Shown: piece after piece, positions 49,814 to 64,000 of the stretch
Layout of the letters: each line of letters starts with the position of its first letter
Position numbering within the stretch: position 1 is the stretch's first letter
Source: Kiloniellaceae bacterium
GTDB taxonomy: Bacteria; Pseudomonadota; Alphaproteobacteria; Kiloniellales; J153
Reading direction: 5' to 3'
NCBI GenBank assembly: GCA_021776095.1
Contig: JAJFGO010000002.1
Coordinates: 1-64,000, forward strand
Length of the DNA: 64,000 nt
Made by a program: the position numbers and the translations under genes
The notes under the pieces: generated by a model
Seen by the model: only the letters and a program-made list of their open reading frames with translations
What the model was told of the DNA's origin: nothing
Database searches by the model: none

Positions 49814-51373
49814 TCATTGCGCGGCCGAAGATTGGGCGAGGGCCGGACGCAAAAGGCAGCGCCCGGTCATTTCCGCCGGCTGGGCCAAACCCATGAGCGC
49901 CAGGACCGTCGGCGCGATATCGGCTAGGCGCCCGTCGGTCAATGCGCCGACCCCGGCCGGCGCATTGACCAGGATCGCCGGCACCTTGTTCATGGTGTGC
50001 GCGGTATGGGCTTGGCCGGTCGCCGCATCGGACATTTGTTCGGCATTGCCGTGGTCGGCGGTGATCAAGAGGGTTCCGCCGGCCTTGGTCAGTGCCGACT
50101 CGACCCGGCCCAGACAGGTATCGACCGCCTCCGCCGCCGCGATCGCCGCCTGCAAGTTGCCGGTATGGCCGACCATGTCGCCGTTCGCGTAGTTGACCAC
50201 GATTAGGTCGAAGCGCCCGCTCTCAATGGCGCCGACCAACTTGTCGGTCAATTCGGGCGCCGACATTTCCGGCTGCAAGTCGTAGGTCGCGACCTTGGGC
50301 GAGGGGATCAAGATGCGTTCCTCGCCGGCGAAGACCGCTTCGCGGCCGCCGTTCAAAAAGAAAGTAACGTGCGCGTACTTTTCGGTCTCCGCGATGCGCA
50401 ACTGCGTCAGCCCCGCATCGGCCACCACCTCGCCCAGGGTGTGGCGTAGATGGAGCGGCTCGAACATGGTGCCCAAAAAAGGGTTCAGATCGTCCGAATA
50501 TTCGACCAGGCCGACGGCGGCCGCGAAGCGCACGGTTCGATCGCGCGCGAAACCGTCGAACGCGGGGTCGAGTAGGGCGGCCAGGATCTCGCGCACCCGG
50601 TCGGCCCGGAAATTGGCGCACAGCAGGCCGTCGCCGTCGGCCATGCCGGTAAAGCCCTCGATCGCGGTCGGGCGCACGAACTCGTCGGCCAGGTCGGCTT
50701 CGTAGCTTTGCTCGACCGCGGCGATGGCGTCGGGCGCCCGATCGCCCCGGCCGGCGACCAGGGTTTCGTAGGCCAGGGCGACTCGCGCCCAGCGCTGGTC
50801 GCGATCCATGGCGTAATAGCGCCCAATGACCGTCGCGATCCTGGCTGCCGGCGCCTGGTCTCTGAACCGCCCGATATAGTCGAAGGCGCTACGCGGCGGG
50901 GTGTCGCGGCCGTCCAGGACGGTATGAACCGCCACCGGGACACCGGCCCCGTGAAGAATGTCCGCCAGGCACGCCATATGGTCCTGATGGGAATGTACGC
51001 CGCCGGGCGACATCAGGCCCAGGATATGGGCGGTGCCGCCACTGGCCTTCAGCTTGGCGATAAAGTCGCGCAGGGCCGGGCGTTTGGCCAAGCTGCCGTC
51101 CTCGACCGCCCGGTCGATGCGCGGCAAGTCCTGCATCACCAAACGTCCGGCGCCCAGGTTCATATGCCCGACCTCCGAGTTGCCCATCTGGCCGCTGGGC
51201 AGGCCGACCTCCTGCGCCGAGGCATCGATCAGCGCGCGCGGGCAGCCGGCGCGGAATCGGTCCAGGGCCGGGGTGCGGGCCTGGCGGATGGCGTTATCCT
51301 CGGGGTCCTCGCGGTGGCCCCAGCCATCCAGGATGCACAGGACTACGGGGCGCGGAGGGCTCGTCTCGGTCAT
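49814..51373 (-). CDS. gpmI: 2,3-bisphosphoglycerate-independent phosphoglycerate mutase
   Basis: A 519-residue, two-metal phosphoglycerate mutase that interconverts 3- and 2-phosphoglycerate. The alkaline-phosphatase-like core has ILDGWGHRE, the phosphoserine nucleophile Ser66 in GNSEVGHMNLGAGR, DGRDTPPRSA, YYAMDRDQRW, NYANGDMVGHTGN and ITADHGNAEQM, which supply the manganese ligands. Length is normal. It lies between rlmH and envC, an order found in many alphaproteobacteria. Confidence 0.97.
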   Translation of the reverse strand: MTETSPPRPVVLCILDGWGHREDPEDNAIRQARTPALDRFRAGCPRALIDASAQEVGLPSGQMGNSEVGHMNLGAGRLVMQDLPRIDRAVEDGSLAKRPALRDFIAKLKASGGTAHILGLMSPGGVHSHQDHMACLADILHGAGVPVAVHTVLDGRDTPPRSAFDYIGRFRDQAPAARIATVIGRYYAMDRDQRWARVALAYETLVAGRGDRAPDAIAAVEQSYEADLADEFVRPTAIEGFTGMADGDGLLCANFRADRVREILAALLDPAFDGFARDRTVRFAAAVGLVEYSDDLNPFLGTMFEPLHLRHTLGEVVADAGLTQLRIAETEKYAHVTFFLNGGREAVFAGEERILIPSPKVATYDLQPEMSAPELTDKLVGAIESGRFDLIVVNYANGDMVGHTGNLQAAIAAAEAVDTCLGRVESALTKAGGTLLITADHGNAEQMSDAATGQAHTAHTMNKVPAILVNAPAGVGALTDGRLADIAPTVLALMGLAQPAEMTGRCLLRPALAQSSAAQ

Positions 51374-51423
51374 GCCGCAGTATATATGTTGATTCGGGCC
51401 GATTCCCTAAGGTTTTCGGGCCA

Positions 51424-51906
51424 TCAGCCGCGATGGTAGGGGTGCCCGGTCAGGATGGTTTGGGCCCGGTAGAGCTGCTCGGCCAGCATCGCCCGGACCA
51501 GCATGTGAGGCCAGGTTTGGGGCCCCAGGGACAGCACCAGCGCGGCCTCGGCGCGAAATTCCGGGTCCAGCCCCTCGGCCCCGCCGATCGCAAAGGCGGC
51601 CTCGGCCGTGCCCGCGTCGCACCAACGGCCCAACAGCGCGGCGAAGTCCTCGCTGGATAGGGCCTTACCCCGGCTGTCCAGGGCGATCAGGCGGGCGCCG
51701 GGGAGGATCGCCGCACGCAGCAATTCGGCTTCGCGGCGCATGAGTTCGCTGGGGGCCAGGGGGCGCCGGTCCTCGACCTCCTTAAGGGTCAGGGGGCCCA
51801 GGGGACCTCGAATCCGCTGCGGGTTCAGGCGCGTGGCGAACTCGGTGTAGAGCTCGCGCGCCGGCCCCGCCTTGGCCCGCCCGACGGCGGCCAGGGTGAG
51901 TTTCAT
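51424..51906 (-). CDS. rlmH: 23S rRNA (pseudouridine1915-N3)-methyltransferase RlmH
   Basis: A 160-residue SPOUT-family methyltransferase that modifies helix 69 of 23S rRNA. It starts MKLTLAAVGRAKAGPARELY. The knot region has FAIGGAEGLDPEFR and LSLGPQTWPHMLVRAMLAEQLYRAQTILTGHPYHRG-type sequence, with the characteristic C-terminal PYHRG end. It follows rsfS, as is usual, and both act on the large ribosomal subunit. Confidence 0.95.
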   Translation of the reverse strand: MKLTLAAVGRAKAGPARELYTEFATRLNPQRIRGPLGPLTLKEVEDRRPLAPSELMRREAELLRAAILPGARLIALDSRGKALSSEDFAALLGRWCDAGTAEAAFAIGGAEGLDPEFRAEAALVLSLGPQTWPHMLVRAMLAEQLYRAQTILTGHPYHRG

Positions 51907-51962
51907 AGGATCGTCCTCGCTTCCCCGCCCCAGGCGACCTCATCCCGGGGCGGCCCCGGGCC

Positions 51963-52397
51963 TTAGACCTTGGCTAGGGGCCGTCCTGCCGCGGTGCCGG
52001 CGCTTGGAATATCGACCCCCCACATCTTTTCGAGCCCGTAGAACTCTCGAATTTCGGGCCGGAAAAGGTGGACGATGACATCGCCCCCGTCGATCAGGAC
52101 CCAGTCGGCGCGGGCCGCGCCTTCAACCGATACATTGGGCGCGCCGGCGGCCTTCAGCCGTTCGCGCAGATGCTCGGCCATGGACGCCACCTGCCGGCTG
52201 GAACGCCCGCTGGCGATGACCATGAAGTCCGCGATCGTCGATTTTCCGAGAAGGTCGATGGTGACGACGTCCAGCGCCTTGTCGTCATCCAGCGAGGTTT
52301 GGACCAGCTCGAGCAGCTTTTTGCTGTTGGCGAGCGGGTCATTCTTCGCGGCCCTACGGGGCCGCGCGGCCTTGGAGGCACTGATTTGGGTTATTAT
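51963..52397 (-). CDS. rsfS: Ribosomal silencing factor RsfS (non-standard start)
   Basis: RsfS binds ribosomal protein L14 and blocks subunit joining in poor nutrition. The frame encodes KKLLELVQTSLDDDKALDVV, then TIDLLGKSTIADFMVIASG, RQVASMAEHLRERL, DWVLIDGGDVIVHLF and PEIREFYGLEKMW, all family blocks. The first ATG in frame (52223) would delete the conserved DDDKALDVV part. Upstream of it, no ATG, GTG or TTG exists before the in-frame stop at 52418-52416. A strong AAAGGAG site (core GGAG at 52411-52408) points to an ATA codon at 52397 or 52394 as the probable start, giving about 144 residues. A sequencing error is the alternative. It lies between nadD and rlmH in the usual order. Confidence 0.85.
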   Translation of the reverse strand: MITQISASKAARPRRAAKNDPLANSKKLLELVQTSLDDDKALDVVTIDLLGKSTIADFMVIASGRSSRQVASMAEHLRERLKAAGAPNVSVEGAARADWVLIDGGDVIVHLFRPEIREFYGLEKMWGVDIPSAGTAAGRPLAKV

Positions 52398-52447
52398 GGC
52401 GCTCGGTCTCCTTTGCTATCACTCGGTATCGGGTGCGGCGGCCCTAC

Positions 52448-53086
52448 CTAAGGCCGCCTGGCCCGGATTTTACGCGCCGCCCGGATCCGGGCCGAGGACT
52501 GCGGGTACAGCCCTTGATGGACAAAGACCCAGGCAGGTGGCGTCCGGCGCGCCAGGAGGCCGGCCCGCGATTCGGGCTGGCGCTGCCGCGCGAAGCGCCG
52601 TGCCGCGATTCCGGCCAACGCCCCTAAATGATAGGAAGGTCGGTCGAAAACCGCAACGGGCAGTATATGAAACAATTCTTGCCAATTCTTCCACGCCGGC
52701 ACCTGAAGTAAATTGTCGGCGCCCATTAACCATACGAAATTTACCCTGGGAAAGCGCTGGACCAGGGCATTCAGGGTATCGACGCTGTAAACCGTGCCTA
52801 GGGCGCTTTCGATCGCGCCGACCCGAATCCGCGGATGCCGGGCCCGGGTCCGAGCGGCCGCCAGGCGCTCCGCCAGGGGTGCCGATTCCGCCGGGGATTT
52901 CAGGGGATTCTGCGGCGATACCAGCCACCAAACCTGATCCAGGCGCAGGCGGCGCAGGGCCTCGCGGCTGATCGCCAGGTGCCCCTCGTGGGCCGGGTTG
53001 AAGGAGCCGCCGAGCAGCCCGATCCGCTGCCCCGGGGCAGGCAGATGCCCGCCCATGGCGGCGGCCAGGCGGGCCGGGGTTGGCAA
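52448..53086 (-). CDS. nadD: Nicotinate-nucleotide adenylyltransferase
   Basis: A 212-residue enzyme that adenylates nicotinate mononucleotide in NAD synthesis. The nucleotidyltransferase motif is GLLGGSFNPAHEGHL, followed by DQVWWLVSPQNPLK, WLMGADNLLQV and the C-terminal SSARIRAA loop, a variant of the family SSTxIR. The chosen start is TTG, preceding a short leader PTPARLAAAMGG; an ATG ten codons further in is an alternative, and neither has a clear ribosome-binding site. It lies between proA and rsfS, which is the normal alphaproteobacterial order. Confidence 0.93.
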   Translation of the reverse strand: MPTPARLAAAMGGHLPAPGQRIGLLGGSFNPAHEGHLAISREALRRLRLDQVWWLVSPQNPLKSPAESAPLAERLAAARTRARHPRIRVGAIESALGTVYSVDTLNALVQRFPRVNFVWLMGADNLLQVPAWKNWQELFHILPVAVFDRPSYHLGALAGIAARRFARQRQPESRAGLLARRTPPAWVFVHQGLYPQSSARIRAARKIRARRP

Positions 53087-53109
53087 TGCGCCATTTAGGG
53101 CCGATCCGT

Positions 53110-54402
53110 TCAGGGCCGGACCTGCCCGGTACCACGCACGATGTATTTGTAGCTGGTCAATTGCTCGGCGCCGATCGGGCCGCGCGCGTGCAGCCGGCCG
53201 GTCGAGATGCCGATCTCCGCGCCCATGCCGAACTCGCCGCCGTCGGCGAACTGGGTCGAGGTGTTGTGCATGACGATGGCGGCGTCGACGCGCTTGAGAA
53301 AGGCGTCGGCAGCGGCCGCGTCCTCGGTCACGATCGCCTCGGTGTGTTGCGAACCGTGGCGCGCGATATGGTCCAGGGCGTCGTCCAGACCTTCAACCAC
53401 CTTAACGGCCAGGATCGCGTCCAGGTATTCGGTGTCCCAATCGGCCGGCGTGGCGGCGACCGCCTGCGGCGCCATCTTGCAAACAGACTCGTCGCCGCGA
53501 ATCTCGCAGCCGGCCTCGATCAGATCCTTCAGGATTGGCGGCAACATGCCGGGCGCGGCGGCACGGTCGATCAGCAGAGTTTCGGTCGAACCGCAGATTC
53601 CGGTCCGCCGCATCTTGGCGTTCAGCACGATCTCGCGCGCCTTACGCGCATCGGCCCCGGCGTGAATGTAGGTGTGGCACATGCCGTCCAGATGGGCGAT
53701 CACCGGGATCCGGCTTTCGTCTTGGACTCGCTCGATCAAACCGCGCCCGCCCCGTGGCACGATAATATCCACGAGATCGTTCATGCCGAGCAAGATGCCA
53801 ACCGCATCCCGGTCGGCGGTCGGCACGCGCTGGATCGCGGCCTCGGGTAGACTGGCGGCGCGCAAGCCGGTTTGCAGCGCGGTGTGTATCGCGCTGGAGG
53901 ACAGGAAGCTTTCCGAGCCGCCGCGCAGGATGGCCGCGTTACCCGCCTTGAGGCACAGTCCGCCCGCGTCGGCGGTCACGTTCGGGCGGCTCTCGTAGAT
54001 CACGCCGATGACGCCTAGGGGCACCGCGACCCGCGCGATCTTCAGACCGTTCGGCCGGTCCCATTCGGCCAGGGTGCGACCGACCGGATCGGGGAAGTCG
54101 GCGATCGCCTCCAGCCCGCTGCCCATGGCATCGATCCGGCCCGGGTTGAGGGCCAGGCGGTCCAGCATGGCTTTGTTCAGGCCCTTGGTGCGGGCCGCTT
54201 CCATGTCCTTGGCGTTGGCCGCCAGGATCTCGGCACTGGCGCGCCGGATCGCCTCCGCCGCCGCGCGCAGGGCCTTGGCCTTGGTCTTGGCGCTGGCGAG
54301 GGCGAGTTCGACCGCCGCGCCGCGCGCCGCGGCGCCGATCACATGCATCTGCGCGCGTAGATCGTCAGCGGCGGGCTGGATCGCCGCGGGCTCTGCGGTC
54401 AT
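53110..54402 (-). CDS. proA: Gamma-glutamyl phosphate reductase
   Basis: A 430-residue NADPH-dependent enzyme of proline biosynthesis that reduces gamma-glutamyl phosphate to the semialdehyde. Family blocks are [45 protein letters not shown] and the catalytic cysteine Cys270 in [13 protein letters not shown]. The C-terminal [23 protein letters not shown] is typical. It follows proB by 26 bases on the same strand. Confidence 0.97.
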
Positions 54403-54428
54403 GAGGCGTCTCCCGCTTTGCCGGTGCC

Positions 54429-57365
<2,937 letters not shown>

Positions 57366-57380
57366 GCCGTAAGTCTTGGT

Positions 57381-57418
57381 CCAAACGAAAACGAGGGGAA
57401 CGGCACCCGTTCCCCTCG
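57381..57418 (-). terminator. Rho-independent terminator after rpmA
   Basis: A perfect 12-base-pair stem (CGAGGGGAACGG with CCGTTCCCCTCG, 57392-57418) closes a three-base loop. Read on the minus strand it is followed by TTTTCGTTT, so it terminates rplU-rpmA transcription. On the plus strand no T-run follows. It separates the ribosomal protein pair from the GNAT-obgE-proBA genes, which would then need a promoter of their own or read-through. Confidence 0.85.
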
Positions 57419-57478
57419 AAATCGAAAACCATGTGGGAGCAAGGCGCCTCGAATTCGGAGGCCGCTCGCTTCCGAATC

Positions 57479-57754
57479 CTATTCGGCCGGCGGGGCCGTC
57501 TCGCCGGGCAGCACCGACACGTAGGTCCGCCCGAACTTCTTTTGGGCGAAACTGACCTCGCCCTCGACCAGGGCGAACAGCGTGTGGTCCTTGCCCATGC
57601 CGACGTTCGCGCCGGGATGGAACTTGGTGCCGCGCTGACGAACCAGGATGTTACCCGGGATCGTCTTCTGGCCGCCGAACAGCTTGACGCCGAGGCGGCG
57701 TCCCGCGGAATCGCGCCCGTTGCGCGAAGAACCGCCGGCTTTCTTATGGGCCAT
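57479..57754 (-). CDS. rpmA: 50S ribosomal protein L27
   Basis: A 91-residue L27. The N-terminus [29 protein letters not shown] is diagnostic, and its first residues reach the peptidyl transferase centre. [29 protein letters not shown] follows. There is no N-terminal cleavable extension of the Firmicutes type. It follows rplU by six bases and is closed by a strong terminator. Confidence 0.98.
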
Positions 57755-57760
57755 GCCGTC

Positions 57761-58342
57761 TTACTCCTTGTCGCTCTTGGCTGCTTTTTTTGCGGCCGTC
57801 TTTTTCGGGGCCGCTTTTTTCGCCGGCGCCTTCTTGGCCGCCGCCTTTTTGGGCGCGGCCTTCTTTGCCGGGGCTTTCTTGGCGGCCGTCTTTTTCGCTG
57901 CTGCCTTTTTGGGCGCGGCTGGCTTCGCGGCGACTTTCTTGGATAGGGTCTTCTTGGCCTGGGGCTTCTGGGTCGCGGTCTTGGTTTTTTCCGCGGGCGC
58001 CTTGGCCTTGGTCGGGGTCGGCTGCTTGCCGTCGGTCAGGATCTCGGTCACCCGCAAGACGGTGAGGTCCTGGCGATGGCCGTGACGCCGGCGATGATGC
58101 TTGCGCCGCTGCTTCTTGAAGACGACGATCTTGGCGCCGCGGGTCTGTTCGAGCACCTCGGCGGCGACCGTCGCGCCCTCGACCAGGGGTGCGCCGACCT
58201 GCAGGCCGGCCTCGGTCTCGAGCATGAGGACCGCGTTGAGCGCCAGGGTCTCGCCGGGCTCGCCCGCCAGTTTCTCCACGCGCAAGATATCTTTGGGGGC
58301 GACCTTGTATTGCTTGCCGCCGGTTTTGATGACCGCGAACAT
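57761..58342 (-). CDS. rplU: 50S ribosomal protein L21 with long Lys/Ala tail
   Basis: The first 105 or so residues are ordinary L21 (MFAVIKTGGKQYKVAPKDIL; FKKQRRKHHRRRHGHRQ; LRVTEILTDG). L21 normally ends there. This protein continues for about 87 residues (107-193) of lysine, alanine and proline repeats such as KKAPAKKAAPKKAAA, reminiscent of histone H1-like tails, and ends SDKE. The reading frame is continuous, and the tail's codons show the GC bias of a translated region, so it is probably expressed. The tail should be disordered and could contact rRNA. rplU-rpmA form one operon. Confidence 0.95.
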   Translation of the reverse strand: MFAVIKTGGKQYKVAPKDILRVEKLAGEPGETLALNAVLMLETEAGLQVGAPLVEGATVAAEVLEQTRGAKIVVFKKQRRKHHRRRHGHRQDLTVLRVTEILTDGKQPTPTKAKAPAEKTKTATQKPQAKKTLSKKVAAKPAAPKKAAAKKTAAKKAPAKKAAPKKAAAKKAPAKKAAPKKTAAKKAAKSDKE

Positions 58343-58761
58343 GACGATGGCTTACCGATAATGCGTACAAAAAGGAAACGCCGCCGGCCCCCTTCGGACC
58401 AGCGCGCGACGGGCGGGACTATAGCGCGGCGCCCCCGCCTGTCAACGCCTTTCCGGGCCGTTTGGCAACCACCCCGGCGCCTTTCAGGGCGCCGGCAAGG
58501 GCCCAAACCGGACCCGGGGGTTGGCTGGGGCCCGCGGACGGCTCGGCCCGGCCGATCGGCCGGGTGCAACGACCCCGAAAAGCGGCCCAAATAACCCACG
58601 GGGCGGCCCCCGAGGCCCCCGGCGCGGGGGCCCGGACGGGCGACCGTGGCCGGGGGATCGGCCCAAATTCGGCGGCTTGCGAGGCTTCGCACCTTCCTAT
58701 ACGGTCCGCCCCGTTTCGGCCCGGCGCGTTCAGCCCCGGACCCGGGGCCGGACCCGCCCGC
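58343..58761. other. Gene-free, very GC-rich region between rplU and tRNA-Ser
   Basis: About 420 bases containing the divergent upstream regions of rplU (minus strand) and tRNA-Ser (plus strand). The central part is an extreme run of C and G with many short self-complementary pieces (for example GGCCCGGCCGATCGGCCGGG at 58545-58564). Open frames here are artefacts of base composition. A weak promoter-like pair for the tRNA (TTGCGA at 58677 and TATACG at 58698) has only a 15-base spacer, so I do not claim it. No L21-specific leader motif was recognised. Confidence 0.5.
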
Positions 58762-58851
58762 GGAGGGGTGCCGGAGTGGTCGAACGGGGCGGTCTCGAAA
58801 ACCGTTGTACGCGCGAGCGTACCGTGGGTTCGAATCCCACCCCCTCCGCCA
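58762..58851 (+). tRNA. tRNA-Ser (anticodon CGA)
   Basis: A class II tRNA of 90 bases. The acceptor stem GGAGGGG pairs with CCCCTCC. The anticodon stem GCGGT/ACCGT has loop CTCGAAA with anticodon CGA (reads UCG). A long variable arm (GTACGCGCGAGCGTAC) marks it as serine, the T-arm is GGGTTCGAATCCC, the discriminator is G, and CCA is encoded. Sequence composition changes sharply right after the CCA (ACTAATTATTATTAAC), as at the edge of an element integrated in the tRNA 3' end. No second copy of the tRNA end was seen to the right inside the window. Confidence 0.96.
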
Positions 58852-59061
58852 CTAATTATTATTAACTATATGAATTAGTTTAATAATTGTCATTTCAGAA
58901 AACAAGTGTCCCACATTGTGACCCCTATTTCGTATGCTGTTACCCGCTTTGAGCCTGGCGGGATAGGTGGTTACCTGGGGCAGATAGTAAGGACCTGATT
59001 GGCTCCCCCGCGCAGAGTGCAAGAGTAGAAAAACTAGGGTGCTTTTCAACCACGCAATAGG

Positions 59062-59090
59062 TTGACCCGACTGCGCAAGCGCGATGTATT
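59062..59090 (+). promoter_or_regulatory. Predicted promoter upstream of the STAND NTPase gene
   Basis: TTGACC (59062-59067, five of six matches to the -35 consensus) and TGTATT (59085-59090, four of six) are separated by 17 bases. Transcription would start near 59097, directly at the hairpin that covers the next ribosome-binding site. The sequence between the tRNA and this promoter (58852-59061) is AT-rich with no recognisable gene. Confidence 0.4.
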
Positions 59091-59093
59091 TTG

Positions 59094-59119
59094 CCCCCCG
59101 TGTTACTAATCACGGGAGG
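59094..59119 (+). promoter_or_regulatory. Hairpin overlapping a Shine-Dalgarno sequence
   Basis: The arms CCCGTG (59097-59102) and CACGGG (59111-59116) are perfectly complementary around an eight-base loop. Pairing extends with one mismatch to 59094 and 59119. The right arm contains most of the Shine-Dalgarno GGGAGGA (59114-59120) of the ATG at 59124. If formed in RNA it would hide the site. As DNA, the same inverted repeat could be a regulator-binding operator. Confidence 0.45.
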
Positions 59120-59123
59120 ATAC

Positions 59124-59294
59124 ATGCCAACCAACTGCAGCAAAGAGAAAATTCTTTCCGCCTGCGGATGTCGGCAGTTTATGACCCGAAGCGGTCGAAT
59201 TGGAACGTATGGCATCCGCCCCAGACTGAGGGCGGATATCTTGCTGAGCCGGAGTCCAAGCATACAATCGGTCAGTCGGCGCCTTGATTGTTAG
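59124..59294 (+). CDS. Possible 56-residue small protein upstream of the STAND NTPase
   Basis: An ATG three bases after GGGAGGA, a strong ribosome-binding site, and downstream of a plausible promoter. The product starts MPTNCSKEKILSACGC, has four cysteines and is basic; it resembles no family I know. It ends 26 bases before the large NTPase gene. The real function may be that of a leader peptide whose translation affects the downstream gene, or it may be spurious. Codon use is not clearly diagnostic. Confidence 0.3.
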   Translation: MPTNCSKEKILSACGCRQFMTRSGRIGTYGIRPRLRADILLSRSPSIQSVSRRLDC

Positions 59295-59320
59295 CCACTC
59301 AACAATTTTTTGGTCTAGCG

Positions 59321-62300
59321 ATGTCACAATCACCTGAACTTGCCGGCGGAGAGGGTTTCACTTTTGAGGGTGACGCGGCTGCATTCTACCTCAGCGCGCT
59401 GTTGGCCGAAGCATATGCACCCGGCATCGATGATCGAACCGTTGTTCGCGTATCGGTTCAGCAGCGAGACTTCGGCGAACCGCTCGATGATGTGATCGTC
59501 GATTTTGAGGATGCCGCAAAAAAACCCGCTCGCCTTAGCCTCCAGGTGAAACGTCCGCTCACTATCAGCGTCGCGAAAACGAATACCGACTTTCGCGATA
59601 TCATCCACGACAGTTGGGCCACCCTCAAGAAATCTGACTTCCGCATCAACGCGGACCGCTACGGGGCAGCAGTCGGCACGGTCACCCCTGCCAAAGAACG
59701 GGCGCTTAGGACCCTTTGCGATTGGGCCCGTGAAAGTCTGACGGCTGACCATTTCGACGCTCGCTTTGCACAGGGCGGTAGCGCCAGCAAAGGCATCAAA
59801 GCTGTCAAGGACGATGTCGTTACTCTGCTGGAAGAGGCAAACGGGGCGCCGTGCACGGGTGAAGAAGTGCATCGGTTCCTTGCGCACTTCGTTCTGATCC
59901 AATTCGATTTCCTTCGAGAAGGGGCCACTGATCCGCCTGATGCCATTAATCGCATTCGAGATTGCCTCGCGCCCCATGACGCAGCCAAGGCTTCCCTCGT
60001 CTGGTCAAAGGTCGTTCAGTTGGCCCGCACATCAGCAGGGAAATCAGGTCAATTTGATCGCTCGCGGCTCGTGCGATTGATCTCCCCTGTCGCACGCCTT
60101 CGAAGCGCACCCTCCTTACGCCTCGACCTCGACAAGCTAACGGGGCTCGCAAAGAGCTACGCGCACCTCATTTCGGACGACATTGGCGGAACGAAGCTCG
60201 ACCGCGCCCTGCTCCTTGAGAACCTAAACGCCAAGCTCACCACGGCCCGTGTCGTCCAGGTCCGCGGCCTGCCAGGAAGTGGTAAATCAGTCTTGGTGAG
60301 GCGAGCGGTACAACGCGCGCTAGAGCGCGGGCCGGTCCTCTTCCTCAAGGCCGAACAGCTCGAAGGCACCAGCTGGATCAGCTACGCAACCTCGCAGGGT
60401 CTCTCTGGTGCTCCCTTGGAGCAACTTCTCGTGGAGGTCGGGGCGGCTGGCGCTCCCATTTTGTTCATCGATGCAATTGATCGCATTGAGAAGGAGCACC
60501 AGCCCGTAATCCTCGACGTGATCCGCGCCATCGTGGAGTCGCCGCTGCTCGATAATTGGCGCATCGTTGTCTCTCTTCGCGACACCGGGATTGAAGTGCT
60601 TCGCAATTGGTTAGGCCACTTCCTTGATGTCCTTAAGGTCGAGGCTCTTGAAGTTGGTCAGCTGAGCGACGAAGAGGCTGAGACACTCGCAAAAGCCAAA
60701 CCACACCTGAGGCCGCTTCTGTTCGGATCACCCCAGGTAAGAGAAATTGTCCGACGCCCCTTTTTTGCGAAGGTGCTCAACCAGAGTTACGTGGCTGATC
60801 CTAGCGCTCCAACATTCGCCCCTCAATCTGAACTCGATCTGATCGAGAATTGGTGGCGACGGGGCGGCTACAACGAATCCGGCCAAAGCGCGGTTGAACG
60901 CCAACGCGCGCTGCTCGACTTGGCTCGTGTTCGCGCCCGCCGGCTTAGCCAGCCGATTAGCCTTAGCCACCTGAGCTCGGTCGCACACATCTCTGATCTA
61001 AGATCGGATGGCATACTTCAAAATGCTCGCGAAGGGATATCGGTCCGCTTCGCTCACGATGTCTTTTTCGAATGGGCCTTCTTCCATGTCCTGGCGGAAC
61101 GCGGGGCCCGATGGATGGAAGAGATAAAGGCCTGCGGCGAGCCACCCGCGATCGCACGCGTCGTCGAACTCGTTTCCCAATGGGAGTACGCGCAGGGGAA
61201 AGACTGGCCGGCGTACCTCGCCAAAACCGAGGATTCGGACCTTCGATCACAATGGCTTCGAGCGTGGCTGGTCGGCCCCCTAGGAACTGCGAAGTTCGAA
61301 GTCGATGAGGACCAATTCGCGACGGTCGTCTTTGCCGAAGACTTCCGCCTTTTCAGGAAGGCGCTCGTCTGGTTTCAGGCTGAGAAGACCTCCCCGAATG
61401 CGAATGTCCTCGCCGGTGCGCTCCCACTGGATCAACGCCAACGCTTCGCTGACCTTCTCGGTTGGCCTTCTGACTTCGCCGCGTGGCGTCGGCTCATCAA
61501 CTTCATCCTTCGGCGCATTTCAGATATTCCGCAGAGGCTCTATCCAGAAGTCGTCGCTGTCTTCGAGGTTTGGCAGAATGCTCTAGCTGACTATCACAAT
61601 CCGACGTCTCGCGCTCTTCTACAACAATGCGCGACTTGGCTCTCCTCCATAGATGCAGCCAGTACCGCCGATGGGCCCGACGAGAACTCTGCGTTCTGGG
61701 AGAAGGTGTCCGATCTGGGCACTTTCCGAAAATCCTTGGGCCAGCTCCTTTTGAGGTCGTCGAGAGCTGAGCCGACCTTCGCGGCCGATTATTTGCAGCG
61801 GGTCGCCAATTCAGAGCGCATCCGCGACGATGCATTTCATGACATCATCACCTATTCACCCACCCTCGCCCAATCGCTGCCCCAGTCGGTGGTCGAGCTT
61901 TCACTAGCGTTCCTGCGAGAGGAACTTCCAGACGAGCAAGTCGCTCGCGAAAATCAGGAACGTCATGACGCAGCTGAGTGGCGCAAAGCAGTCCTGGCGA
62001 AGCCGGAAGCCGAGCGCTCGCGTAAAGAAAAAATGTCGCTTTCGAGTGGGTTGTTTCTGCGAACCATCGGTGGTTTCAGCTACCACGACTGGGAAAGCCT
62101 TTCGATCCACGACGACCACCGAAGCTTCTGGCCTCCTTCCCCGCTTCGAGAGCCCTTTCACTCACTTTTCCAATCATCTCCCGACGAGGCACTGAGGCTC
62201 CTTCGGGAGCTCTGCAATCATGCGATGACCGCGTGGCGACAGCTGCATCGTCACTCACGCGACCGTGGGGGCACTCCTATAACGCTCGAACTGACATTTC

Positions 62301-64000
62301 CCTGGGGGACCCAAAAGTTCTGGGGCGCCGACCGGGAGTATCTTTGGTTTCGGTCGACGTGGGCGCCCAAAGCCATCGGTTGCGGGTTTATGGCGCTCGA
62401 GGAGTGGTGTTTCGCCGAGCTTGCGCGGAGCCGGCCGGTTGACGAGCTGATCCAGCATATCGTTGAGGGGAACGAGTGCATCGCCACCCTGGGTATCGCG
62501 TCGATGCTCGCGCTCCACACGGAGACGGTATCCGAAACTACGTTGCCGCTCATCACCTCACAGCGCCTGTTGGCGGCAGACCATAACCGATGGGCGCAAG
62601 ACCTCTCGCCGACCGCTAGCCTAATCGGTTTTACATATCGCAGCGACCAGCCTCACATTGAGGCGATCCGAGCAGCAGATGCCCGGCCGGTTCGCAAGAC
62701 AGAGCTTAGTTGTATGGTGCCAGGGTTCGTCTTTGCGACAGGGCCGATCCGCGACCGAGCCCGTGAAGCGATCCTTAATTTTGAGAACGATCTGCCATAT
62801 CAATACGAAGAGCACCGCAACAATCCGAGGGCACGGGAGGACCTCACAGCTCAGGCCCTCGAATATGCCGAGTTGGCGGACCCGAAAAACTATCAGGCCT
62901 ACCGCACCAAAGAGGGTTCAGACCAGATTGCGATTGTCCATGTGAGCCCTTCCGCCGCTAAGCCTGAAAACGTCGCTAGGGCCGAAGAGGCCTCTAAGCA
63001 GCTTAGTCAGACGGGCCTTTGGACGTGGGCATCCAAGTCCTTCGAAGAGAAGAGACTGGGCGACACCTACACGGTCGAGGATGCCATCGCATTGGCCAGG
63101 GACGCGGACGCCAGCGACCTTTTTGAGCACTCAAAGGACGAGAACGAAGAAGAGCGGTTGGGTATGCGTCGAGGTGCGGTCGCCGCTACCGCGGCCATCA
63201 CGCTCAACTTCCGAGAAGGGCGCACACAAGAAGACCTTGAGTGGGCTCGTGATGTCCTAGGGCGCGCGATCCGCCTGCCAGAAAAGCCCGATCTGATGTG
63301 GACGCCTGGTTCTGTCATCCCCTGGCACCAGGCTATCTACGTGGCACGAGGTCTCGCAGCGGATCTCCGCGAAGGTACAGCGGCACGCGGCGCGGCTCGC
63401 AACCTCCTCGGGCTGATTGCGCACCCACTTGAAGTCGTTTCGTTGGCCGCGCTCGAAGAATCGTGCAACCTTTGGTCCAAGGACCCGAAGCTGGCTTGGG
63501 CCGCGCTGATCTTGGCATTTTCGCTCTGCCACGTTCCGCCGCGGCCCCGCGGTCAGCTCCGTCAACACCATGAAGCGCTCCACTCGTCGAGTGAAGCGCA
63601 AGCGGCGATCGACGCGGCACTTGCGTTCTATGAGAACGGAGGCGGATGGACCTCCCTTCCGTTACCGCCCCCAGCCTGGGTGAAGGCCGAACCCGGGAAG
63701 GGCCGGCGTGGGCGTCAAAGCTATGAAGATTACGACGCGGATGATGCAACCGACGCGGCTGAGGTGTGGGCTGAACCGGATGTCTTCTGGCACTCAAAGC
63801 AGGCCGCAGAAATCCTTAAGCGCATCCCCTTCGATGAGGTCCTGAGCAGTAGCGCGAGAAGTGCGCTCCTCGACTTCCTTGCTGTTGCTCTCGACTGGAC
63901 CAACCAGAAGAATGCGCCGCCATGGGTGAAGCCCGGACGCCGAGATCGTTCGGCGACCCGCATCTTCGAATGGACCCACGCCCTAGGGTCAACGCTCGGC
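59321..64000 (+). CDS. Large STAND NTPase with N-terminal nuclease-like domain (Avs-like), 3' end outside window
   Basis: An uninterrupted frame of 1,560 codons still open at the window edge. The N-terminal region of about 130 residues has GEGFTFEGDAAAFYLSALL, then Asp56-Asp57 (EPLDDVIVDF) and Gln75-x-Lys77 (SLQVKR). That pattern fits PD-(D/E)xK nucleases of the Cap4/DUF4297 or Mrr-like kind. A P-loop NTPase follows: Walker A GLPGSGKS (Lys322), Walker B APILFIDAID (Asp384, Asp387), and a sensor-like WRIVVSLRD (Arg420). This is the STAND layout. The following roughly 1,100 residues are predicted helical with no named repeat visible, as in sensor regions of Avs proteins. It is next to tRNA-Ser and has lower GC than the core. 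An anti-phage role is inference, strongly suggested by architecture; the exact Avs type is undecided. Confidence 0.65.
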   Translation, partial: MSQSPELAGGEGFTFEGDAAAFYLSALLAEAYAPGIDDRTVVRVSVQQRDFGEPLDDVIVDFEDAAKKPARLSLQVKRPLTISVAKTNTDFRDIIHDSWATLKKSDFRINADRYGAAVGTVTPAKERALRTLCDWARESLTADHFDARFAQGGSASKGIKAVKDDVVTLLEEANGAPCTGEEVHRFLAHFVLIQFDFLREGATDPPDAINRIRDCLAPHDAAKASLVWSKVVQLARTSAGKSGQFDRSRLVRLISPVARLRSAPSLRLDLDKLTGLAKSYAHLISDDIGGTKLDRALLLENLNAKLTTARVVQVRGLPGSGKSVLVRRAVQRALERGPVLFLKAEQLEGTSWISYATSQGLSGAPLEQLLVEVGAAGAPILFIDAIDRIEKEHQPVILDVIRAIVESPLLDNWRIVVSLRDTGIEVLRNWLGHFLDVLKVEALEVGQLSDEEAETLAKAKPHLRPLLFGSPQVREIVRRPFFAKVLNQSYVADPSAPTFAPQSELDLIENWWRRGGYNESGQSAVERQRALLDLARVRARRLSQPISLSHLSSVAHISDLRSDGILQNAREGISVRFAHDVFFEWAFFHVLAERGARWMEEIKACGEPPAIARVVELVSQWEYAQGKDWPAYLAKTEDSDLRSQWLRAWLVGPLGTAKFEVDEDQFATVVFAEDFRLFRKALVWFQAEKTSPNANVLAGALPLDQRQRFADLLGWPSDFAAWRRLINFILRRISDIPQRLYPEVVAVFEVWQNALADYHNPTSRALLQQCATWLSSIDAASTADGPDENSAFWEKVSDLGTFRKSLGQLLLRSSRAEPTFAADYLQRVANSERIRDDAFHDIITYSPTLAQSLPQSVVELSLAFLREELPDEQVARENQERHDAAEWRKAVLAKPEAERSRKEKMSLSSGLFLRTIGGFSYHDWESLSIHDDHRSFWPPSPLREPFHSLFQSSPDEALRLLRELCNHAMTAWRQLHRHSRDRGGTPITLELTFPWGTQKFWGADREYLWFRSTWAPKAIGCGFMALEEWCFAELARSRPVDELIQHIVEGNECIATLGIASMLALHTETVSETTLPLITSQRLLAADHNRWAQDLSPTASLIGFTYRSDQPHIEAIRAADARPVRKTELSCMVPGFVFATGPIRDRAREAILNFENDLPYQYEEHRNNPRAREDLTAQALEYAELADPKNYQAYRTKEGSDQIAIVHVSPSAAKPENVARAEEASKQLSQTGLWTWASKSFEEKRLGDTYTVEDAIALARDADASDLFEHSKDENEEERLGMRRGAVAATAAITLNFREGRTQEDLEWARDVLGRAIRLPEKPDLMWTPGSVIPWHQAIYVARGLAADLREGTAARGAARNLLGLIAHPLEVVSLAALEESCNLWSKDPKLAWAALILAFSLCHVPPRPRGQLRQHHEALHSSSEAQAAIDAALAFYENGGGWTSLPLPPPAWVKAEPGKGRRGRQSYEDYDADDATDAAEVWAEPDVFWHSKQAAEILKRIPFDEVLSSSARSALLDFLAVALDWTNQKNAPPWVKPGRRDRSATRIFEWTHALGSTLG

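What the first reader, a model, noticed from the sequence alone, without database searches (positions are those of the whole stretch)
59321..64000. Giant STAND NTPase with a nuclease-like N-terminus, probably an Avs-like immune sensor
The frame stays open for 1,560 codons and leaves the window. A Cap4/DUF4297-like putative nuclease (Asp56-Asp57, Gln75-x-Lys77), a STAND P-loop module (Lys322, Asp384, Asp387) and a very long helical C-terminal region reproduce the three-part design of bacterial NLR-like (Avs) proteins, which recognise phage proteins and then cut DNA. The large sensor part shows no motif I can match to a named Avs subtype, so it may be a new branch. Its position right behind tRNA-Ser suits a mobile defence island.
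Basis: partly seen in the sequence, partly recalled or inferred. Interest (0 to 1): 0.82.

Follow-up and report, generated by a model that had tools for sequence, protein, structure and literature searches.

The report
Avs4-related phage sensor with Cap4-like nuclease
A giant bacterial immune-type protein that most likely senses a phage protein and then cuts DNA: its sensing half is a distant relative of the known portal-protein sensor Avs4, but it carries a different DNA-cutting head and belongs to a large, unnamed, widely spread branch.

Summary
The open frame is a gene of 1,794 codons that ends 705 bases beyond the window. Residues 1-262 model as a Cap4-type PD-(D/E)xK nuclease; 263-620 are a NACHT/STAND switch (VIA Z about 22 to NLRC4/NLRP3); 621-1794 are a mostly helical sensor. 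Yet it is far from Avs4 itself (94.7 bits against a cut-off of 1,500), with a different nuclease head. It belongs to an unnamed family: 171 relatives in one genome scan, nine phyla by record title, 91% DNA identity to a Nitrosomonas copy, absent from 29 close relatives, lying behind tRNA-Ser. Within the family the head changes three times on the tree, once to a probable protease with an MBL-type partner gene. Best explanation: an anti-phage sensor, probably for the portal protein, that triggers a suicidal nuclease. Ligand and cutting are inferred. Novelty: new variant of a known kind.

The parts
58762..58851 (+). tRNA-Ser (CGA); its 3' end is where similarity to congeneric genomes stops
   Evidence: ARAGORN; matches to G398, G399 and G402 end at 58851 or within 3 bases of it
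58852..59320 (.). 469-base spacer between tRNA-Ser and the start codon; no similarity to the same-genus genomes found
59321..64000 (+). Gene for the 1,794-aa STAND protein (1,560 codons lie in the window; stop at contig position 64705, outside the window)
59321..60106 (+). Residues 1-262: Cap4-type PD-(D/E)xK nuclease (effector)
   Evidence: AF2 model of residues 1-620, pLDDT 89.9; VIA residues 4-259 to Cap4 6vm6 Z 13.2, LmuA 9hr5 Z 13.0, HerA-DUF 9c1m Z 12.7; PADLOC DUF626_VIII E 9.3e-26
59486..59491 (+). Asp56-Asp57, candidate metal ligands
   Evidence: invariant in 60 of 60
59543..59551 (+). Gln75-x-Lys77 of the QxK motif
   Evidence: invariant in 60 of 60; lies on strand 69-80 of the model
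60107..61180 (+). Residues 263-620: NACHT/STAND NTPase with its C-terminal helical/winged-helix end
   Evidence: VIA Z 20-22 to NLRC4, NLRP9, NLRP3, NOD2; Pfam NACHT and AAA_16 below cut-off; NCBIfam Avs4 residues 291-593
60266..60289 (+). Walker A GLPGSGKS (residues 316-323; Lys322)
   Evidence: G316, P318, G319, G321, K322 invariant
60458..60487 (+). Walker B ILFIDAIDRI (residues 380-389; Asp384, Asp387)
   Evidence: D384, D387, R388 invariant
61049..61075 (+). FAHDVFFEW motif (residues 577-585) at the end of the STAND module
   Evidence: F577, H579, D580, F583, E584, W585 invariant
61181..64000 (+). Residues 621-1560 of the Avs4-type, mostly helical sensor (whole sensor: residues 621-1794)
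   Evidence: model of the 89%-identical homologue L031, residues 596-1794, pLDDT 88.0; VIA 8dgf Avs4 Z 23.8, 980 residues, chain 491-1587; hhalign to Avs4
62273..62326 (+). Residues 985-1002 (TPITLELTFPWGTQKFWG): a conserved beta hairpin in the mostly helical sensor
   Evidence: conservation; strands 394-398 and 401-406 of the sensor model, which has a second short strand pair at 596-612; part of the best-conserved sensor stretch, residues 931-1030

Best explanation
This is an intracellular anti-phage sensor of the STAND/NACHT (Avs, bacterial NLR-like) kind. The C-terminal helical arm, of Avs4 type, binds a conserved phage protein made during infection, most likely the portal protein. Binding lets the NACHT module bind or exchange ATP and oligomerise. 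That brings together and activates the N-terminal Cap4-type PD-(D/E)xK nuclease, which degrades phage and host DNA and stops the infection by killing or arresting the cell. Shown here by sequence and model: the three modules, their invariant catalytic residues, the Avs4 relationship of the STAND module and sensor, a patchy distribution that points to horizontal transfer, and exchange of the head within the family. Inferred: defence function (about 0.9), nuclease activity (about 0.85), portal as ligand (about 0.55), tetramerisation as in Avs4 (recalled for Avs4; about 0.6).
For: Full-length gene under purifying selection. STAND plus sensor: hmmsearch of the family profile finds 8dgf (Avs4 with phage portal) at E 2.3e-20 in two stretches, with Avs2 (9o4e) at 0.69 and Avs3 not listed at E up to 1. 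hhalign to an Avs4 alignment gives E 8.5e-31 over 1,305 columns, profile positions 290-1764. Foldseek of the 1-620 model ranks Avs4-portal first at E 2.1e-12, then NOD2 and other NLRs. Foldseek of the sensor model gives Avs4 E 6.2e-19 against at best 1.4e-5 for anything else; VIA Z 23.8 against 11.2. Nuclease: VIA to Cap4, LmuA and HerA-DUF; D56, D57, Q75, K77 invariant. Mobility: none of the 29 nearest other genomes has it; the nearest copy found is in Nitrosomonas halophila at 89% aa and 90.9% DNA identity, while full-length copies in the window's own class in the phylum sample are only 41% and 37% identical (G285, G075); GC 0.590 against 0.644 for the preceding 58.9 kb. Effector exchange: 3 changes on the tree among 69 rows.
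Against: No defence gene can be seen beside it: upstream is housekeeping by my reading of the frames and the held contig ends 295 bases downstream. Identity to Avs4 is only about 13-16%, so the ligand may differ. It fails the Avs4 equivalog cut-off. I saw no functional data for any member. The N-terminal match to Cap4 is by fold at Z about 13 within a 620-residue model; Pfam DUF4297 was not listed. Pseudomonadota rows are somewhat clustered on the tree, so transfer is not unlimited.
Confidence: 0.8

Rival explanations
1. Same machine, different ligand: an Avs-type nuclease whose diverged sensor reads the large terminase subunit or another phage protein instead of the portal.
For: Only about 13-16% identity to Avs4 over the sensor. 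The sensor's residues 1031-1300 and 1301-1560 are the least conserved parts of the family (mean pairwise identity 0.36 and 0.32 among 59 sequences). A published paper states that Avs1-4 read the large terminase subunit, portal proteins or another phage protein, and shows that Avs5 reads an early jumbo-phage protein (passages of PMC12931631).
Against: The Avs4-portal complex is the only solved structure listed whose sensor matches nearly end to end.
Confidence: 0.3
2. A STAND nuclease aimed at plasmids or other mobile DNA, or a programmed-death switch with no phage ligand.
For: Relatives lie on 27 plasmid records and some beside integrases and transposases, so the gene could serve the element that carries it.
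Against: The closest fold along the STAND module and sensor is a phage-protein receptor. Defence elements are commonly mobile, so mobility does not favour this reading.
Confidence: 0.08
3. The apparent acquisition is an assembly artefact: the contig joins host DNA to a contaminant at tRNA-Ser (the genome is scored 4.44% contaminated).
For: Similarity to congeneric genomes stops at the tRNA 3' end, the held contig ends soon after the gene, and the nearest copy is in Nitrosomonas.
Against: The flanks of the Nitrosomonas copy gave no DNA match to the window's flanks. A relative in Shinella sits on the same strand about 360 bases behind another tRNA-Ser in a record labelled complete. The gene's identity as a family member does not depend on this.
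Confidence: 0.07

Closest known systems
Avs4 (AVAST type 4; PDB 8dgf; NCBIfam NF041815)
   Same: STAND module and the C-terminal sensor, by profile and by fold
   Different: About 13-16% identity; 94.7 bits against a cut-off of 1,500; N-terminal effector not aligned by profile (alignment starts at residue 292)
Avs3 (PDB 8dgc)
   Same: Nuclease head plus STAND; VIA Z 13.4 over residues 2-585, rmsd 16.7. That Avs3 carries a Cap4-type nuclease is recalled, not tested
   Different: Not among the matches listed for this sensor
Cap4, LmuA and HerA-DUF nucleases
   Same: N-terminal PD-(D/E)xK nuclease fold
   Different: Those nucleases are coupled to SAVED/CARF (title), Lamassu or HerA parts, not to a STAND sensor
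PADLOC candidate PDC-M54A and model DUF626_VIII
   Same: PDC-M54A matches residues 10-586, DUF626_VIII residues 1-266
   Different: Only partial coverage; PDC-M54A carries no description in the library
Eukaryotic NLRs (NLRC4, NLRP3, NOD2)
   Same: NACHT module, VIA Z 20-22 over about 330 residues
   Different: Different effector and sensor domains

Membership tests
STAND/NACHT NTPases | Walker A and B motifs in a NACHT fold followed by its C-terminal helical/winged-helix region | tested here: met
   K322, D384, D387, H579, D580 invariant; VIA Z about 22 to NLRC4 and NLRP3 over residues 262-620
Avs4 (AVAST type 4) | Score above the curated NF041815 equivalog cut-off (1,500 bits) | tested here: not met
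   94.7 bits
Avs4 (AVAST type 4) | Avs4-type C-terminal sensor | tested here: met
   hhalign E 1.7e-18 for the sensor alone, 8.5e-31 for STAND plus sensor; VIA Z 23.8
Avs4 (AVAST type 4) | Avs4's own N-terminal nuclease (Mrr-like, recalled) | tested here: inconclusive
   Profile alignment starts only at residue 292; the VIA row for 8dgf spans residues 4-620 at rmsd 15.9
Avs4 (AVAST type 4) | Activated by phage portal protein | not testable with these tools
   needs co-expression or a complex structure
Avs3 (AVAST type 3) | Avs3-type sensor for the large terminase subunit | tested here: inconclusive
   Avs3 (8dgc) not listed for the sensor model nor in the profile search at E up to 1; an absent row excludes nothing
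Cap4-type PD-(D/E)xK nucleases | Nuclease fold with conserved acidic and QxK residues | tested here: met
   Fold; D56, D57, Q75, K77 invariant. Activity not tested
Pfam DUF4297 | Sequence match to the Pfam model | tested here: not met
   Not among the 10 Pfam families listed at E up to 10; HMMER's filters drop most weak matches
System behind PADLOC model DUF626_VIII (retron type VIII, recalled) | Reverse transcriptase gene beside the effector | tested here: inconclusive
   I recognised no RT-like frame in 50000-59320 (read by eye); only 295 bases downstream are held

The most novel reading that the evidence does not exclude
An unnamed sister branch of Avs4, spread over many phyla, in which one portal-type sensor works as an exchangeable chassis. 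It is mounted on a Cap4-type nuclease (this protein), on what looks like a trypsin-type protease with a separate MBL-type partner gene (the effector pair recalled for AVAST type 1 and some Lamassu systems), or on a third head of unknown kind, so that the same phage pattern is read out through chemically different executioners.
Probability: 0.5. Interest if true: 0.62.

Novelty: new variant of a known kind. Interest (0 to 1): 0.5.

Why it matters
It links a widespread group of giant proteins, annotated on plasmids only as 'hypothetical', 'ATP-binding' or 'NACHT domain' or not at all, to a phage receptor with a solved structure, and so gives a direct ligand hypothesis. Copies that are 83% identical to the window protein over residues 268-1794 but carry another head (L042, L050) are a natural experiment: they allow a clean test of whether the sensor alone sets phage specificity and the head alone sets the way the infection is stopped.

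Tried and rejected
Rejected: 'sensor outside all known Avs clades' (searches place it with Avs4). Rejected: a housekeeping STAND regulator; none of 29 close relatives has it. Rejected: a conserved partner gene for the nuclease-headed form; clustering of 494 frames within 4.5 kb found, among groups present in at least 3 loci (smaller ones were not printed), only an integrase-like family in 6 loci and four groups in 3 loci each.

Led nowhere: PDB sequence search with the single protein (no hit); tblastn in phage records (no match); PHROGs (no family for P0001 at E up to 0.1); searches for the third head of L042/L046/L050 (Pfam, PHROGs, plasmids, PADLOC, IMG/VR: nothing convincing; the PDB profile search mixed both kinds of head and is a weak test); a downstream copy of the tRNA-Ser 3' end as attachment site (none seen in the 6.5 kb held). 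Against the protease reading of the L101/L107 head: Pfam listed no protease family at E up to 1, and the PDB gave only a weak hit to an 'Anti-bacteriophage protein A/HamA' chain (E 0.061). Paper searches for an already named group of this kind: (listings only), plus passages of PMC12931631. Two papers looked up by DOI as the Avs discovery paper and the retron survey (DOIs recalled) are not held, so I cannot say that this branch is not in print. No control set of random neighbourhoods was scanned beside. The tree is FastTree only, and 21 rows have odd letter make-up.

Full report
Observation. The reading frame at 59321-64000 is open through the window's end. The held contig runs to 65,000 bases, and the frame stops at position 64705, so the protein has 1,794 residues. 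The nearest relatives share the ATG at 59321 and others start within about ten residues of it.

Domains by sequence. Pfam gives only sub-threshold matches, the best AAA_16 (residues 308-403) and NACHT (310-457). PADLOC gives DUF626_VIII for residues 1-266 (E 9.3e-26), Avs4 for 292-587 (2.4e-19) and the candidate family PDC-M54A for 10-586 (1.3e-12). NCBIfam gives Avs4 at 94.7 bits against a cut-off of 1,500, with a second stretch in the sensor. phmmer with the single protein finds no PDB chain, but a profile of nine relatives finds 8dgf, Avs4 with phage portal, at E 2.3e-20 in two stretches (profile positions 281-776 and 928-1278); the next chain, a plant resistance protein, is at 0.0017, Avs2 at 0.69, and Avs3 is not listed.

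Domains by fold. The model of residues 1-620 (60 sequences) has mean pLDDT 89.9. Foldseek ranks Avs4-portal first (E 2.1e-12), then NOD2 and other NLRs. VIA aligns residues 262-620 to NLRC4, NLRP9, NLRP3 and NOD2 at Z 20-22, and residues 1-262 or most of them to Cap4 (Z 13.2), LmuA (13.0), Hachiman (12.7) and HerA-DUF (12.7). The sensor was modelled on the 89%-identical homologue from Nitrosomonas halophila (residues 596-1794, 66 sequences; mean pLDDT 88.0, pTM 0.74). It is mostly helical, with two short strand pairs. Foldseek gives Avs4 at E 6.2e-19 with the next match at 1.4e-5. VIA gives Avs4 Z 23.8 over 980 residues (chain 491-1587, rmsd 6.7) and 11.2 for the next, an importin. For long helical repeats Z up to about 13 may be background according to the tool's note; 23.8 stands clear of it.

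Relation to Avs4. So the STAND module and sensor are homologous and collinear, while the N-terminal effector is not recognisably the same one. Avs4 proper is rare in the window's phylum sample: 18 of 299 genomes match NF041815 at E up to 0.001, the window's own among them, and 0 of 299 exceed its cut-off. A published paper (PMC12931631, passages seen) states that Avs1-4 nucleases cleave phage and host genomes after recognising the large terminase subunit, portal proteins or another phage protein.

The family. One scan of the genome collection found 213 candidate stretches, 171 of them relatives, of which the best 80 were kept as 77 loci. By record title the 66 labelled rows of the tree fall in nine phyla: Pseudomonadota (55 rows), Thermodesulfobacteriota, Nitrospirota, Chlorobiota, Verrucomicrobiota, Campylobacterota, Bacillota, Myxococcota and Fibrobacterota; many are metagenome bins. 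In a sample of the window's phylum, the window's genome included, 14 of 398 genomes match the protein, some over one domain only, and 12 of 398 match the sensor profile. Plasmid records: 27 match, 6 over at least 80% of the query, none with an Avs name among the 27 rows, several of which have no annotation. IMG/VR: 4 loci. Phage records: none. On a FastTree tree of 71 rows the phylum labels together need 11 changes, and shuffled labels need 11.0 on average; Pseudomonadota alone is somewhat clustered (8 changes against 10.4; 6 of 500 shuffles as low). This fits wide transfer but, as the tool warns, is no proof of it.

Transfer into this genome. None of the 29 other nearest genomes, three of them of the same genus, has the gene. 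In two of the three congeneric genomes the sequence up to and including tRNA-Ser is conserved and similarity then stops; the third gave only tRNA-like matches. Behind that tRNA one has frames that read as a broken serine recombinase and the other frames that read as a transposase (named by eye). Gene GC is 0.590 against 0.644 for the preceding 58.9 kb, and DNA identity to the Nitrosomonas copy is 90.9%, whereas full-length copies in the window's own class in the phylum sample reach only 41% and 37% protein identity. A relative in Shinella lies about 360 bases behind a tRNA-Ser(TGA) on the same strand, one in Desulfovibrio lies 5.7 kb behind a tRNA-Ser(CGA), and in Ochrobactrum a 31-base, 94%-identical copy of the tRNA-Ser 3' end without the rest of the tRNA lies 2.2 kb away on the other strand. 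Of 60 loci scanned, 10 hold a tRNA or tmRNA somewhere in the stretch, one of them tRNA-Ser; of 7 scanned, one (Shinella). So tRNA-Ser is a recurrent but not a general neighbour.

Neighbourhoods. I scanned 134 nearest flanking frames (at most one on each side, 150-900 aa) from 77 loci. Seven of 134 match Phage_integrase and a few match transposase models (25 of 119 Pfam families shown). PADLOC models matched include AbiEi, AbiEii, a type I methyltransferase, GajB, SoFic and LmuA/Avs1a (25 of 73 shown). No control was scanned. Some annotated plasmid copies sit beside a recombinase and an integrase (Polaromonas) or, for a distant relative, near a type I restriction system and an abortive-infection gene (Sinorhizobium pSymA).

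Exchange of the head. Five of the 77 loci match only from about residue 261-270 although the frame runs on upstream. In L042, L046 and L050 the head is about 180 residues of unknown kind. In L101 and L107 it carries what I read by eye as a His-Asp-Ser trypsin-like set ending in GISGS. For: the L107 head matches a PADLOC LmuA model (E 9e-12); the gene just upstream in both matches LmuA, RTasMBL and Avs1a models (E 1.1e-33 or better); and in a Vibrio plasmid a relative of this head directly follows a gene annotated 'MBL fold metallo-hydrolase'. Against: no protease family was listed by Pfam and none by the PDB search. On the tree of STAND plus sensor the head changes 3 times among 69 rows; two rows cut by contig ends (L043, L051) were left out of that count. 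L042 and L050 sit among nuclease-headed copies, 84% identical to L031 in the sensor and 83% to the window protein; L075, nuclease-headed, is sister to the two L101/L107 copies. Exchange of heads is expected of Avs proteins (recalled), so this supports the reading rather than being new in principle.

Mechanism. From the anatomy: sensor binding, NTP-dependent oligomerisation and activation of the head nuclease, with loss of phage and host DNA. Module identities, invariant motifs and patchy distribution are shown; ligand, oligomer and cutting are inferred. The portal is the most likely ligand because the only solved receptor found with this sensor fold binds a portal; at 13-16% identity this is a hypothesis (about 0.55).

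Verdict. A real, full-length, probably horizontally acquired Avs-type protein. Membership in Avs4 proper fails on the curated cut-off; 'works like Avs4 with a Cap4-type head' stands. I rate it a new variant of a known kind, interest 0.5.

Noticed in passing
L101:898-7099 and L107:8326-14497: Avs4-type STAND/sensor fused to a probable trypsin-like protease head (motif read by eye; Pfam lists no protease), with an MBL-type gene (PADLOC LmuA/RTasMBL/Avs1a models) just upstream.
   Followed up: partly
L042:9335-9990, L046:9437-9980, L050:1470-2030: About 180-residue head of unknown kind replacing the nuclease in copies whose sensor is 84%, 70% and 84% identical to L031; no convincing library match.
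   Followed up: partly
L029:5998-7683 and L030:5974-9537: The N-terminal nuclease module also occurs in shorter proteins (561 aa in Agrobacterium pAt, 1,187 aa in a Shewanella plasmid beside an Abi gene and a super-infection exclusion gene), so it is a module used elsewhere.
   Followed up: no
L142:1782-3714 and L141:1678-2816: Right behind the same tRNA-Ser, one congeneric genome has frames that read as a broken large serine recombinase and another has frames that read as a transposase: this tRNA flank looks like an insertion hot spot in the genus.
   Followed up: partly
L080:7720-7750: A 31-base, 94%-identical copy of the tRNA-Ser 3' end without the rest of the tRNA, 2.2 kb from the family gene: likely an attachment-site remnant.
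   Followed up: partly
L065, L069, L060, L054, L070, L067, L023, L026, L111: Several relatives are split into pieces by stops or frameshifts, as one would expect of costly defence genes.
   Followed up: no
window 64000 / contig C2 end: The held contig is exactly 65,000 bases long, 295 bases past the stop codon, so anything downstream of the gene is unseen.
   Followed up: no
L164:1-6211: On a Haliscomenobacter plasmid a 1,655-aa Avs4-like protein has a 347-aa gene directly upstream and a SLATT-domain gene before it.
   Followed up: no
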